Below are positions 10,976-49,596 of a stretch of 52,092 nucleotides of DNA, piece after piece. This DNA is from an uncultured Bacteroides sp. (GTDB lineage Bacteria; Bacteroidota; Bacteroidia; Bacteroidales; Bacteroidaceae), in contig CASENS010000036.1 of NCBI GenBank assembly GCA_949289345.1, positions 1 to 52,092 of the forward strand, written 5' to 3'. The position numbers and the translations under genes are program-made. Each line of letters starts with the position of its first letter. The stretch's first letter is position 1. The notes beneath the pieces were generated by a model that had not been told where the DNA came from, did not search any database, and saw only the letters and a program-made list of their open reading frames with translations.

Positions 10976-11010
10976 CTTTTGTCTCTTAAGTGTTTTTAAG
11001 ACTTCCTTTG

Positions 11011-11405
11011 TGGACCTGGAGGGAATCGAACCCTCGTCCAAACGAGGAAACCATAAGCTTTCTACATGCTTATCTCTGCCTTTGGTTTTCGAGCGCAAGC
11101 AAGACCAGAGCCACCAACTTGCGTCTTATCCTCTAAAACTTCACAAAAACTGCGAGGAAAAGTTTTCGCTATTCCCGATTTTGCTGTGCCGCTTTACCAA
11201 ACGCTTCGGAACAAGAGCTTTTGAGCGACATCCCGTTTCCGCTACTTTAGCGGAAATAAAGCTGATCTACTGTACTTCGATCAAGCAGCGAGAGCGTAAC
11301 GTTCGTTGCCAGATAATTGTTCGATAACTGAGATTTAAGTGGAAATTACCGACCCACTGCATGCTTACCTACCATTTCTGCCCGCTGTCAAATCCAGTCA
11401 AGCCC
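11011..11405 (-). ncRNA. ssrA: Transfer-messenger RNA
   Basis: The minus strand begins GGGCTTGACTGGATTTGACA, a typical tmRNA 5' end, and finishes with a tRNA-like T arm GAGGGTTCGATTCCCTC and the acceptor strand CAGGTCC followed by A. The 5' GGGCTTG and 3' CAGGTCC pair with G-U wobbles. A reading frame ending GCTCTCGCTGCTTGA encodes the tag. Counting back from the stop (11281-11283), GGC at 11308-11310 is the likely resume codon, giving GNERYALAA. The molecule rescues stalled ribosomes and marks the peptides for degradation. Length is about 395 nt. Confidence 0.96.
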
Positions 11406-14696: not shown

Positions 14697-14784
14697 CGGA
14701 GAGAGGGGGATTCGAACCCCCGATACCCTTTAGGAGTATACACGCTTTCCAGGCGTGCCTCTTCAACCACTCGAGCATCTCTCC
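14697..14784 (-). tRNA. tRNA-Ser (anticodon GGA)
   Basis: The minus strand folds as a class II tRNA. The acceptor GGAGAGA pairs with TCTCTCC, the D arm is TGCTCGAGTGGTTGAAGAGGCA, the anticodon stem-loop is CACGC-CTGGAAA-GCGTG with anticodon GGA, a long variable arm follows, and the T arm is CGGGGGTTCGAATCCCCC. The discriminator is G, as required for serine. It reads TCC and TCT. Confidence 0.97.
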
Positions 14785-25625: not shown

Positions 25626-25699
25626 TGACCCGGGCGGGATTCAAACCCGCGACCTTCAGAACCGGAATCTGACGCTCTATTCAGCTAAGCTACCAGGCC
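25626..25699 (-). tRNA. tRNA-Arg (anticodon CCG)
   Basis: The minus strand gives acceptor GGCCTGG pairing with CCGGGTC (two G-U), D arm GTAGCTTAGCTGAATAGAGC, anticodon stem-loop TCAGA-TTCCGGT-TCTGA with anticodon CCG, and T arm GCGGG-TTTGAAT-CCCGC, with discriminator A. It reads CGG. Its 3' end faces the accessory region with the broken integrase. Confidence 0.97.
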
Positions 25700-34611: not shown

Positions 34612-35260
34612 AGATTGGTTGCAACAGTTGATTTACAAAATCATAAATCCTGTTGTGCATGGCATGATTAAGGTGGGCATCACGCCCAATATCATTACGA
34701 CTACGGGGCTGGTGCTGAATATTGTGGCGGCTGTCGTGTTTGTGTACGCCGCGGTGACTGACTGGGATACGGCCCTGACCTACGCCGGATGGGCGGGCGG
34801 ACTGGTGCTGTTCGCCGGATTGTTCGACATGATGGACGGGCGGGTGGCCCGTGTGGGAAGCATGACTTCCACGTTCGGGGCGCTGTACGACTCCGTGCTC
34901 GACCGTTATAGCGAGTTGGTTACTCTCTTCGGACTCCTCTATTTCCTGTTGTTTCAAGGCTACCTCTGGGGCTCGGTCATCACCGGCCTGGCCATTATCG
35001 GCTCGCTCATGGTGAGCTACGTGCGGGCACGTGCCGAGGGACTGGGGCTGGAGTGCAAGGTGGGGCTGATGCAGCGGCCCGAGCGTGTGGTGCTGACAGC
35101 CTTGGGCGCCATCTTTGCCAGCGTATTCCAGCGTGTCGAGCTGTTCGACCCCATGTATATCCTCATCGCGCCACTGGCCATTATCGCCGTGCTGGCCAAC
35201 TGGACGGCCTTTGTGCGCATCGGCCATTGTCATAAACTCTTGAAGCAACAAGCGAAATGA
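34601..35260 (+). CDS. CDP-alcohol phosphatidyltransferase (phosphatidylinositol-phosphate synthase)
   Basis: From the ATG at 34601 this is 219 residues with five or six spans. The catalytic signature D-xx-DG-xx-AR-x8-G-xxx-D-xxx-D is complete: [13 protein letters not shown], then [14 protein letters not shown] (about residues 75-102). The enzyme class joins CDP-diacylglycerol with an alcohol; in this cluster the counterpart BT_1523 makes phosphatidylinositol phosphate from inositol phosphate. It overlaps the GtrA gene by 11 bases and the PAP2 gene by 4. Substrate is assigned from context. Confidence 0.92.
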
Positions 35261-36192
35261 ACCGTCTGTCCTTGCCTTCCCTGCGCGAGACGGTGTGGGT
35301 GCTTGTGCTGTCCGCCCTGTTTCTGACGTTGACGGGGCTGTACGTCGGTCTGCGCATAGACCATTTCCTCATCCTTGCCCTCTACTGGGTGTTGTTCTTC
35401 GCCAGCGGCATTACCCGCCGCTTGGCCGTGGCGCTGCTGCCGTTCGTTGTGTTCGCCGTGTCATACGACTGGATGCGCGTGTGGCCCAATTATGAAGTCA
35501 ATCCCGTCGACGTGCGCGGGCTGTACGAGGCCGAGAAGTCGCTCTTCGGCATCACCGCGGGCGGCGAGACGCTGATTCCCTGCGAGTACTTCGCACGCCA
35601 CCATTGGCCCGTGGCCGACTTCATGGCAGGTCTCTTCTACCTCTGCTGGGTGCCCGTCCCCATCGCCTTTGGCGTGTGGCTCTACCTGAAGGGCAAGCGC
35701 GATGTCTACCTGCGTTTCGCCATGGTATTCCTGCTGGTCAACCTTATCGGCTTTGCCGGATATTACATCCATCCCGCCGCCCCGCCCTGGTATGCCATGA
35801 ACTACGGCTTCGAGCCCGTCCTCGGCACGCCGGGCAACACGGCCGGACTGGGGTGCTTCGACCAGATGCTGGGCATCACCGTCTTCGAGGGCATCTACGG
35901 GCGCAACGCCAATGTCTTCGCCGCCGTGCCCTCGCTCCATGCGGCCTATATGGTGGTGGCGTTGGCCTACGCGCTGATGGCCCGCTGCCGGAGGTGGCTC
36001 GTCGGGCTGTTCGCCTTCATCATGGTGGGCATCTGGTGCACGGCCGTCTATAGCGGACACCATTACATCATAGACGTCACCTTGGGCATCGGCTGCGCCC
36101 TGCTTGGCATAGCGGTCTTCGAATGGGGGCTGATGCGATGGGGGGCGTTCCGCCGGTTCTTCGGGCGATACGCCGCTTATCTGAGGGGCTGA
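35257..36192 (+). CDS. PAP2-type phosphatase (probable phosphatidylinositol-phosphate phosphatase)
   Basis: This 311-residue protein has about six spans. PAP2 motifs are present: [11 protein letters not shown] (near 228) and [13 protein letters not shown] (near 265) with the catalytic histidines and Asp, and [11 protein letters not shown] (near 170) in the inositol-phosphorylceramide-synthase-like style. It follows the transferase with an ATGA overlap. Its counterpart BT_1522 removes phosphate to give phosphatidylinositol, which feeds inositol dihydroceramide synthesis. GC content of this gene is strikingly high. A terminator follows at 36217. Confidence 0.9.
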
Positions 36193-36216
36193 CGTATATT
36201 GGTATCTGTACTGACT

Positions 36217-36253
36217 CCCGTATCGCACATCGAGCGTGGTACGGGATTTTTTT
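36217..36253 (+). terminator. Terminator of the inositol-lipid operon
   Basis: CCCGTA (36217) with CAC inside pairs with GTG and TACGGG (to 36245), followed by ATTTTTTT. Confidence 0.85.
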
Positions 36254-36281
36254 GTGCCCTTCTGCTTGCATTTATGCGGAA

Positions 36282-36410
36282 AAGCTGTATATTTGTAAAG
36301 TCAAAAGGTATATACCTTATGGGTAGAAAGGTATATACCTTATAGGTCATAAAGTATATACCTTTTAATGTGTAAGGTATATACCTTTCGACTTAGAAGA
36401 TACGTATATA
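36282..36410. repeat. 23-bp-period array of AAGGTATATACCTT palindromes
   Basis: The 14-base palindrome AAGGTATATACCTT starts at 36305, 36328 and 36374, with AAAGTATATACCTT at 36351: exactly 23 bases apart. Degenerate units sit in register at 36282 (AAGCTGTATATTTG, containing the -7 element) and 36397 (AAGATACGTATATA). The spacers are unrelated to each other. The array spans the transcription start region of the HU-like gene at 36431. Confidence 0.9.
36288..36295 (+). promoter_or_regulatory. Promoter -7 element for the HU-like gene
   Basis: TATATTTG is embedded in the first, degenerate unit of the palindrome array. The start would fall near 36303, at the first perfect palindrome. Confidence 0.6.
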
Positions 36411-36430
36411 ATCATTTATGAGATACTACA

Positions 36431-36889
36431 ATGGCAAGATACAAGTTAAGGAGAAAGCGGAATGGCATCAGCCGTGAAAAGAGTGACCTCTGGTATGCCG
36501 AGCCTTCGCCCGCTCAGCGCATGTCGGCAAGGACGTTGTGCCGTTTCGCCACGCAGCATACGACGATGGGCGGCATGGAGCTTATGATGGCGTTGGAGAT
36601 ATTGGCCCAGTATCTGCCCGGGGTGCTTGCGCAGGGGACGATTGTGGAGCTGGGGAGGCTGGGCACGTTGCAGATTGCGTATGGCAGCGAGGGGGTGGAG
36701 GAGCCGGAGGATTTCAACTATCACCTCATTCGGCAGCCGCGCATCGTGTTCCGCCCTTCGCGTGAGCTGACGCGTGAGGTGGAGCGGCTCATCTCGTTCC
36801 AGTTGGACGGGATTGTGTCGGGGCCATATTCGTTCCCTACGGTGGAGGGCTACCGCCAGTGGCTGAAGGGGCGTGAGGACGAGGAGTGA
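36431..36889 (+). CDS. HU-family (HU-HIG type) DNA-binding protein
   Basis: This 152-residue protein resembles the long Bacteroidota HU-like proteins. It has a basic start (MARYKLRRKRNGISREKSDLW), a helical region with CRFATQHTTMGGMELMMALEILAQYLPGVLAQG (about residues 37-69), and then the HU beta-arm region (VELGRLGTLQIAYG ... IVFRPSRELTREV). Such proteins bind and bend DNA, and many sit next to mobile or glycan loci. The palindrome array lies directly upstream, so self-regulation by this protein or by an unknown factor is plausible. The gene has the high GC content of its surroundings. Confidence 0.8.
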   Translation: MARYKLRRKRNGISREKSDLWYAEPSPAQRMSARTLCRFATQHTTMGGMELMMALEILAQYLPGVLAQGTIVELGRLGTLQIAYGSEGVEEPEDFNYHLIRQPRIVFRPSRELTREVERLISFQLDGIVSGPYSFPTVEGYRQWLKGREDEE

Positions 36890-36926
36890 CGGGATGTATA
36901 TATTCTTATTAATGAACAGATAGCGT

Positions 36927-38099
36927 ATGGAGAATTTCGTATTTTACAGTCCCACGGAGTTTGTCTTCGGGCGGGACACGGAGAGGCAGGTGGGTGCGCT
37001 GGCCGTGAAGCACGGGGCGAGCCGGGTTATGATTGTGTATGGCGGTGGCTCGGCGGTGCGCAGCGGGCTGTTGGACCGTGTGAGGCTGACCTTGCGCGAG
37101 GCGGGACTGACGTTCTGCGAATTGGGCGGTGTGCAGCCTAATCCGACGGACGCGAAGGTGTATGAGGGCATCGGCCTTTGCAGGCGTGAGGGAGCGGACT
37201 TGCTGCTGGCTGTGGGCGGCGGTTCGGTCATCGATACGGCGAAGGCCATTGCGGCGGGCGTGCCTTACGAGGGCGATTTCTGGGATTTCTACATTGGCCG
37301 CGCACAGGTGACGAGGGCGCTGAAGGTGGCTGTGGTGCTGACTATTCCGGCTGCGGGCAGCGAGGGCTCGGGCAATACGGTCATCACGAAGTCGGCCACG
37401 TTGCAGAAGATGAGTCTGCGTGCGCCGATGTATCTGCGTCCGGTGTTTTCCGTCATGAATCCGGAGCTGACTTATACGCTCCCTGCGTTTCAGACGGCCT
37501 GCGGCGTGTGCGACATGATGATACACATCTTCGAGCGGTATTTCACGAACACGACTGATGTGGAGGTGAGCGACCGCATGTGTGAGGGTGTGCTGACGGC
37601 CATCTTGAAGGAGGCTTACCGGGTAAGGCAGAACCCGCAGGATTATGGCGCGCGGGCTAACCTGATGTGGGCCGGCATGGTGGCGCACAACGGTACGTGT
37701 GGTGTGGGATGTGAGGAGGATTGGGCTTCGCATTTCATGGAGCATGAGGTGAGCGCGCTTTACGGTGTGGCGCATGGTGCGGGATTGGCGGTCGTTGTTC
37801 CGGCGTGGATGACGTTCATGGCGGAGCGTCATCCGGAGAAGGTGGCCCAGCTGGGCGAGCGTGTGTTCGGCGTGCCTGTGCAGGATGATTTGCAGGAGAT
37901 GGCTTTGGGCTGTGTGTCGCGTCTGAAGCACTTCTTCCGCTACATGGGGCTTCCGGTCAGCTTCAAGGAACTGGGTGTTGAGAGTCCGGACATTCCTTTG
38001 CTGGTGCGTAAGTTGCATGAGAACAAGGGGCCGCTTGTGGGGAATTATGTGAGGCTGACCCCGAAGGACACTGAGGAGATTTACCGGCTGGCGTTATAA
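36927..38099 (+). CDS. Iron-containing alcohol dehydrogenase (YqhD/BDH type)
   Basis: This 390-residue group III dehydrogenase begins with FVFYSPTEFVFGRDTERQVG. GGGSAVRSGLLDRV (about residues 39-52) and AVGGGSVIDTAKAIA (about 93-107) bind NAD(P). Metal ligands are expected in CGVCDMMIHIFERYF (Asp and His near 193-198), HEVSALYGVAHGAGLAVVVPAW (His near 277) and the His around LKHFFRYMG. YqhD-like enzymes reduce aldehydes with NADPH. It starts 37 bases after the HU-like gene on the same strand. The natural substrate cannot be told from sequence. Confidence 0.9.
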   Translation: MENFVFYSPTEFVFGRDTERQVGALAVKHGASRVMIVYGGGSAVRSGLLDRVRLTLREAGLTFCELGGVQPNPTDAKVYEGIGLCRREGADLLLAVGGGSVIDTAKAIAAGVPYEGDFWDFYIGRAQVTRALKVAVVLTIPAAGSEGSGNTVITKSATLQKMSLRAPMYLRPVFSVMNPELTYTLPAFQTACGVCDMMIHIFERYFTNTTDVEVSDRMCEGVLTAILKEAYRVRQNPQDYGARANLMWAGMVAHNGTCGVGCEEDWASHFMEHEVSALYGVAHGAGLAVVVPAWMTFMAERHPEKVAQLGERVFGVPVQDDLQEMALGCVSRLKHFFRYMGLPVSFKELGVESPDIPLLVRKLHENKGPLVGNYVRLTPKDTEEIYRLAL

Positions 38100-49426: not shown

Positions 49427-49508
49427 CATGACACAAGAGTCCCCTCCTACACTTTTGCATTTCCGTTCAACCATAACCCAAACAGGTACCGAAAATCGGA
49501 TTGCCCGG

Positions 49509-49596
49509 CATCCAATATGAAATGGTAAAGTATCCAATATGAAATGACAAAGTATCCTTGAATAAATGGGAAGGTATCCAAGAATAACGGAAAGAG
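49509..49596. repeat. 22-bp degenerate tandem repeat, locus B (4 units)
   Basis: Units of exactly 22 bases begin at 49509, 49531, 49553 and 49575: CATCCAATATGAAATGGT..., TATCCAATATGAAATGAC..., TATCCTTGAATAAATGGG..., TATCCAAGAATAACGG.... The shared words are TATCC, AATAAATG and a closing AAAG. They fill the 312-base gap between the DUF3127 gene and the HIT gene together with two terminators. Confidence 0.7.

What the first reader, a model, noticed from the sequence alone, without database searches (positions are those of the whole stretch)
36282..36410. In-register array of AAGGTATATACCTT palindromes over a promoter
Four palindromes with exactly 23-base spacing, plus two degenerate ones in phase, cover the -7 element and leader of an HU-like gene. 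The precise phasing with unrelated spacers points to cooperative protein binding or to iteron-like function. I know of no Bacteroides regulator with this site.
Basis: seen in the sequence. Interest (0 to 1): 0.75.

Follow-up and report, generated by a model that had tools for sequence, protein, structure and literature searches.

The report
Private palindrome arrays of HU-like genes
A row of evenly spaced mirror-image DNA words sits just after the start signal of a histone-like gene in a gut bacterium; many related genes carry such a row, mostly with a word of their own, which suggests that each protein recognises its own DNA address and may control itself through it.

Summary
The array is real: four AAGGTATATACCTT palindromes (one with a mismatch) exactly 23 bp apart (triple score 40/42, 300 shuffles at most 28). 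The left 'degenerate unit' is no palindrome; the right one is a different palindrome, GATACGTATA. The array begins 10 bp after the -7, so it covers the likely start site and leader.

It is not peculiar to this gene. A scan blind to palindromes found 22-24 bp arrays upstream of 67 of 116 non-redundant HU-HIG (PF18291) genes of Bacteroidales and 1 of 15 canonical HU genes, usually with different units. Units track protein identity (Mantel r 0.53). In four species the palindromes are invariant (0/56) while spacers vary (10/27). In 9 of 10 genome-word tests the word recurs in another array, here between phnX and phnW.

Best reading: the HU-HIG protein binds its own palindromes cooperatively and represses itself; binding and repression are inferred. 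Against a pure operator: 4 of 9 second arrays lie between convergent genes, and most arrays have no recognisable promoter just upstream. Iteron function has no support.

The parts
36266..36295 (+). promoter-like site: TTG (36266-36268), 19 bp, TATATTTG (36288-36295)
   Evidence: pattern found; Bacteroides -33/-7 consensus recalled, not tested
36305..36318 (.). palindrome 1, AAGGTATATACCTT
36328..36341 (.). palindrome 2, AAGGTATATACCTT
36351..36364 (.). palindrome 3, AAAGTATATACCTT (one mismatch)
36374..36387 (.). palindrome 4, AAGGTATATACCTT
36399..36408 (.). in-phase cap of another word, GATACGTATA (9/10 match to GATACGTATC)
36298..36394 (.). the array as one large imperfect inverted repeat: arms 36298-36343 and 36349-36394, 83% complementary; in relative L124 the array 36305-36387 is inverted in place
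36431..36889 (+). HU-HIG gene, 152 aa; proposed to bind the array
   Evidence: PF18291 70 bits, cut-off 26.2; HU fold in the model
36927..38099 (+). Fe-dependent alcohol dehydrogenase, probably co-transcribed (inferred from the 37-bp gap)
35257..36192 (+). upstream neighbour, phosphoinositol dihydroceramide synthase
   Evidence: NF052609, 533 bits, cut-off 480

Best explanation
The array is the operator of the HU-HIG gene behind it. The HU-HIG protein, of HU fold and presumably a dimer like its family, recognises the dyad AAGGTATATACCTT by sequence, one dimer per palindrome. Dimers 23 bp apart bind cooperatively as a short nucleoprotein filament over the start site and leader, and so repress their own gene and perhaps the alcohol dehydrogenase behind it. 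Related HU-HIG genes mostly carry a different word, which would keep paralogs apart. Arrays of the same word elsewhere, here between phnX and phnW, are further docking sites. SHOWN: the array, its conservation, the recurrence of 22-24 bp arrays before HU-HIG genes, and the same word in a second array of the genome. INFERRED: that this protein binds the array, cooperativity, repression, and any function of the second arrays.
For: 22-24 bp arrays upstream of 67 of 116 non-redundant HU-HIG genes (41 of 44 of the WYA type, to which the window gene belongs), 1 of 15 canonical HU genes; 79 shuffled upstreams reach at most 27 of 42; 17 of 780 control segments pass, 8 of them these very arrays. Consensus units fully dyad-symmetric in 34 of 87 arrays against 3.9% of shuffled units. 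Palindromes 0/56 variable, spacers 10/27, p 3.5e-6; second array 1/56 and 11/27, p 7.7e-6. Unit similarity follows protein identity, Mantel r 0.53, 0 of 2000 permutations. In the closest homologs the array begins 13-18 bp after TAnnTTTG. Model of HU fold, pLDDT 93.3.
Against: No binding or expression data. Inheritance of the array with the gene would also give the protein-unit correlation. Only 26 of 87 arrays have TAnnTTTG within 60 bp upstream of the first unit (about 8 expected; the four window-type orthologs are missed by the rule), so the promoter position is not general. Words are not fully private: four genes share GATGTACATC. Four of nine second sites lie between convergent genes, where no operator is expected. 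G058 has a GGTATATACC array, while its own HU-HIG array reads GGTGTACACC. 49 of 116 HU-HIG genes pass no threshold, 20 of them among 21 of the KFYA type. HU proteins are known mostly as weakly specific binders (recalled).
Confidence: 0.6

Rival explanations
1. Address system rather than operator: HU-HIG proteins are sequence-specific architectural proteins; own and distant arrays are anchor sites that are filamented or bridged to shape the chromosome or insulate gene ends. Control of the own gene is a side effect.
For: The word recurs in another array in 9 of 10 genome-word pairs, though several pairs are orthologous sites. Nine distinct second sites: 5 co-directional, 4 convergent, 0 divergent. 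In-phase composite arrays (L041; L263) and GATACGTATC caps (9 of 46 in-phase against 0 of 368 off-phase).
Against: Few sites per genome in Bacteroides; the densest association is with the gene's own 5' end. No contact data.
Confidence: 0.2
2. Dispersed repeat: the array is a short mobile or copied element (REP/MITE-like) that spreads through intergenic regions; HU-HIG genes are carriers.
For: In UBA4866 copies share long flanks and spacers; G307 has many copies with no HU-HIG gene seen beside them; second arrays avoid divergent regions in nine sites.
Against: In Bacteroides the copies are few, palindromes are constrained and spacers diverge; arrays concentrate before HU-HIG genes with many different words.
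Confidence: 0.08
3. Another DNA-binding protein, for example a GntR-type repressor, reads the palindromes.
For: TGGTATATACCA pairs lie directly before GntR-like genes (my reading of the sequence) in Arenicella and Roseovarius (L047, L050).
Against: No single regulator would explain a different word before each HU-HIG gene; no regulator gene other than HU-HIG is next to the window array.
Confidence: 0.07
4. RNA element: the transcribed leader folds into a long hairpin that controls transcription or translation.
For: The leader folds far better than shuffles, -43.6 kcal/mol, z -5.94; none of nine second sites is divergent, so all could be transcribed.
Against: Any array of palindromes folds so. 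Broken pairs in 21 dyad units are G-T 23 and A-C 23, no wobble bias. No Rfam match at the array. The whole array is inverted in L124.
Confidence: 0.05

Closest known systems
E. coli hupA and P. gingivalis HU PG0121 with large inverted repeats (PMC3969353: abstract and passages seen)
   Same: HU-type protein, inverted repeat at or near a promoter; HU is reported there to repress hupA and hupB.
   Different: There a single large inverted repeat and structure-dependent binding by canonical HU; here arrays of short palindromes at 22-24 bp with different words before many HU-HIG genes.
IHF and its sites (recalled)
   Same: HU fold with sequence specificity.
   Different: Known IHF sites are single and asymmetric; here tandem symmetric units; no strand is predicted where canonical arms would be.
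Iterons and partition-site arrays of plasmids (recalled)
   Same: Tandem repeats of about 20 bp bound cooperatively, often beside the gene of the binding protein.
   Different: Chromosomal, no rep or par gene beside the window array, different word before most HU-HIG genes.
HU-HIG clade, PF18291 (naming paper Burroughs et al. 2017 not held; seen only as a reference)
   Same: The window protein is a member.
   Different: No operator arrays were found described for the family in ten searches of open-access papers (listed under Tried and rejected).

Membership tests
HU-HIG (PF18291) | profile match above Pfam's curated cut-off | tested here: met
   70 bits against 26.2
HU_rel (TIGR01201) | profile match above NCBIfam's curated cut-off | tested here: not met
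   56.9 bits against 68.6
HU/IHF fold | structural match over the HU core | tested here: met
canonical HU/IHF | long two-stranded DNA-gripping arms | tested here: inconclusive
   no strand predicted at residues 84-103; monomer model without DNA
autorepressor with operator array | own protein binds the array and lowers its own expression | not testable with these tools
   needs gel shift and reporter tests
plasmid iteron | replication initiator gene beside the repeats | tested here: not met
   neighbours are a sphingolipid synthase, HU-HIG and an alcohol dehydrogenase
GntR/HutC operator | GntR-type gene beside the site | tested here: not met
   adjacent genes only; elsewhere in the genome not tested
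MITE/REP-type mobile repeat | target-site duplication or empty site in a relative | not tested
   no array-free ortholog of the locus was examined

The most novel reading that the evidence does not exclude
The expanded HU-HIG family of Bacteroidales is an address code: each paralog is a sequence-specific HU-type protein with a palindrome word of its own, written as 22-24 bp arrays at its own 5' end and at one or a few distant intergenic sites. Different words can share one lattice (in-phase composite arrays and GATACGTATC caps), so different HU-HIG proteins could co-assemble into mixed filaments that link distant loci.
Probability: 0.3. Interest if true: 0.92.

Novelty: new variant of a known kind. 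Interest (0 to 1): 0.78.

Why it matters
HU-type proteins are mostly seen as weakly specific DNA architects (recalled), and I know of no tested role for the many HU-HIG paralogs of gut Bacteroidales. If each carries its own DNA word, the role of a large protein family becomes testable at once: binding sites can be read from the genome, regulons predicted, and a set of protein-operator pairs becomes available to study how a histone-like fold gains sequence specificity.

Tried and rejected
Operator of this one gene only: rejected, since arrays recur before many related genes. Iterons: no rep gene beside the array; the window stretch 36200-36900 has no match in the plasmid or phage collections at the sensitivity used. 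Phage-borne: no exact array of two words in viral contigs; the protein scan there confirmed no relative among 48 pattern matches. RNA element. Phosphorus regulon: phnX/phnW, a metallophosphatase and a PHO4-type transporter lie beside some second arrays, but other sites (ketoacyl synthase, GH97) do not fit and the words differ; left as a lead. The order-wide search for the close clade at E 1e-40 found it in 1 of 393 genomes, the own one, so this clade itself is narrow.

Errors made and corrected: genome-search loci are not turned for minus-strand matches, so the minus rows are wrong; replace them. The strict palindrome scan missed the G058 C15 array, which the direct-repeat scan found (row L118). 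The spacer count (18/27) was inflated by an inverted array; one search replaces it (10/27). The 87 arrays are those with period 21-24 and score 29 or more, contain orthologs and one canonical HU gene (L167); the unconditional count is. Genomes G301, G303 and G304 appear again as G792, G793 and G822 (same places); only the 'nr' line (85% identity) removes such repeats. Rows dropped: L138, L023, L101, L164 (upstream too short). L014 was dropped as the same gene as L069. The 15 canonical HU rows and the WYA/KFYA types were set by N-terminal sequence, my choice. The 772 controls are the 780 segments less 8 that I recognised as known arrays; many of them are coding, so they are an imperfect match. 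The cap motif was chosen after seeing two sites, and its 23 arrays were chosen by hand.

Literature: ten searches, listings only; passages of PMC6231650, PMC3969353 and one reference in PMC8195603 were seen. None described such arrays. The Burroughs paper is not held.

Full report
OBSERVATION. Four AAGGTATATACCTT palindromes stand at 36305, 36328, 36351 (one mismatch) and 36374, exactly 23 bp apart. The best triple score is 40 of 42, against at most 28 in 300 shuffles. They lie behind a promoter-like site (TTG, 19 bp, TATATTTG) and before a 152-aa HU-HIG gene (PF18291, 70 bits). The left in-phase unit is not a palindrome; the right one, GATACGTATA, is a palindrome of another word. The first palindrome starts 10 bp after the -7, so the array covers the likely start site and leader.

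SAME GENOME. An exact search for GGTATATACC finds eight places: three in the window array, four in a second array at G000:C102:25087-25165 and one isolated copy inside an integrase-like reading frame (my reading). The second array has the same 23-bp period and lies between phnX and phnW (NCBIfam equivalogs). Between the two arrays palindromes differ at 1 of 56 positions and spacers at 13 of 27.

RELATIVES. One scan of genome contigs for exact GGTATATACC pairs gave 20 stretches, 14 of them of Bacteroidales by title. Three are the window locus in other uncultured Bacteroides (L038, L040, L045), and L041 has eight in-phase units, four GGTATATACC and four GGTGTACACC. In a draw of 301 genomes of the family 2 have the exact pair. 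A DNA search with the gene hit 3 of 251 genomes of the family, the own one included; the four places in the other two each carry an array of a different word just after TAnnTTTG (three, the fourth).

GENERALITY. HU-HIG genes were collected by protein similarity, without regard to arrays (stretches). A scan for three ungapped copies at any period from 15 to 40, blind to palindromes, was run on 330 bp upstream. Of 132 genes, 82 score 30 or more: 40 at 22 bp, 36 at 23, 4 at 24, 1 at 21, 1 at 33. In the non-redundant set 67 of 116 have 22-24 bp arrays: 41 of 44 of the WYA type (with the window gene), 25 of 51 others, 1 of 21 of the KFYA type. Canonical HU: 1 of 15. Shuffled upstreams reach at most 27 (79 shuffles). 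Of 780 control segments 17 pass (22-24 bp, 30 or more), 8 of them these very arrays. In the own genome 9 of 17 scored PF18291 matches pass, the window gene included (L023 too short).

WORDS. Of 87 arrays with period 21-24, the consensus unit has 6 of 6 dyad pairs in 34, 5 in 40, 4 in 12 and 3 in 1; shuffled units give 3.9%, 34.1%, 57.5% and 4.5%. Words include GGTATATACC, GGTGTACACC, GATGTACATC, CATGTACATG, CACGTACGTG, CTCACGTGAG, GACATCACGATGTC and GAGGTCTTGTCCTC; four genes share GATGTACATC. Among 45 aligned proteins unit similarity rises with protein identity (mean 7.5 of 12 below 30% identity, 10.8 above 80%; Mantel r 0.53, 0 of 2000 permutations), while the six same-genome paralog pairs score 8 or 9 against a shuffled mean of 7.8, sd 0.8. 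Inheritance with the gene would give part of this pattern.

CONSTRAINT. In four species the window array's palindromes vary at 0 of 56 positions and spacers at 10 of 27 (p 3.5e-6), with 45 of 134 in the 5' flank, 7 of 43 in the 3' flank and 36 of 152 third codon positions. One array had to be turned: in L124 it is inverted in place (82 of 83 identical when turned, 64 of 83 as it stands). For the phnX/phnW array of three species the figures are 1 of 56 and 11 of 27 (p 7.7e-6).

SECOND ARRAYS. For three words tested in genomes of their genes, a further array was found in 9 of 10 genome-word pairs: GGTATATACC in G000, G301 and G304, not G303; GAGGTCTTGWCCTC in G000 and G301; GATGTACATC in G303, G036, G796 and G723. 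The pairs are not independent: several second sites are orthologous. G058, searched with GATGTACATC, gave none; its own word reads GATGTACGTC. Nine distinct second sites were read: phnX/phnW, ketoacyl synthase/next gene, TonB-type/metallophosphatase, before GH97, and between two outer-membrane-type genes (co-directional); radC/susD, trpS/mutL, yidC/bioD and PHO4-type/rfbB (convergent); none divergent. The names radC, susD, trpS, mutL, yidC, bioD, rfbB and TonB-type are my reading of the sequences. The convergent sites speak against a pure operator role.

LATTICE. In 23 hand-chosen arrays, positions one period outside match GATACGTATC at 9 or more of 10 in 9 of 46 cases, against 0 of 368 off-phase positions; the nine come from four sites, one of them in four species. 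The word is close to the unit of other HU-HIG arrays (L141, L098). In L263 ACGTACGT units continue in phase with GATGTACATC units.

PROMOTERS. In the close homologs the array begins 13-18 bp after TAnnTTTG. Over 87 arrays only 26 have the motif within 60 bp upstream of the first unit, where about 8 are expected; for the rest the position of the promoter is unknown.

MECHANISM. The simplest account is a cooperative autorepressor with dimers on successive palindromes over the start site. Adjacency, the different words and the conservation pattern support recognition by the gene's own protein; binding, cooperativity and repression are untested. Recognition of structure alone (cruciforms) would not keep the word identical among units and between distant arrays. 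RNA-level action is disfavoured by equal G-T and A-C mismatches (23 and 23), although the leader folds well (z -5.94).

KNOWN. The nearest precedent seen is PMC3969353 (abstract and passages): HU PG0121 of P. gingivalis, a 77-bp inverted repeat, and the cited negative regulation of hupA and hupB by HU. The paper that named HU-HIG is known to me from memory and a reference list. Ten searches of open-access papers showed nothing like these arrays; most subscription papers are not held.

Noticed in passing
window 49498-49586: Another 22-bp repeat array (score 35 of 42; units printed) between two convergent reading frames that look like ssb and a HIT protein (my reading). No HU-HIG array with this unit was recognised in the own genome.
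   Followed up: partly
window 36305-36387 against L124: The whole array is inverted in place in a close relative, flanks unchanged; recombination between the outer palindromes or an assembly effect could explain it.
   Followed up: partly
L037, L042, L046, L048, L051 (UBA4866), L049 (UBA5515): A dispersed element with three GGTATATACC units and shared flanks; one copy lies upstream of a HU-HIG gene (L051).
   Followed up: partly
L223-L229 (G307): Arrays of G[GA]TATATA[CT]C type in phase 23 with conserved spacers at many intergenic sites of one Bacteroidales genome, no HU-HIG gene seen beside them.
   Followed up: partly
L047 2384-2416, L050 4471-4503: Pairs of TGGTATATACCA 23 bp apart directly before GntR-like genes in Arenicella and Roseovarius; probably unrelated operators.
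   Followed up: no
L023 1244-1354, L106 1296 onward: 22-bp arrays of GAGTTGCCCAACTC on the downstream side of HU-HIG genes in two genomes.
   Followed up: no
window 11008-11405, 14697-14784, 25626-25699: tmRNA and two tRNA genes.
   Followed up: no
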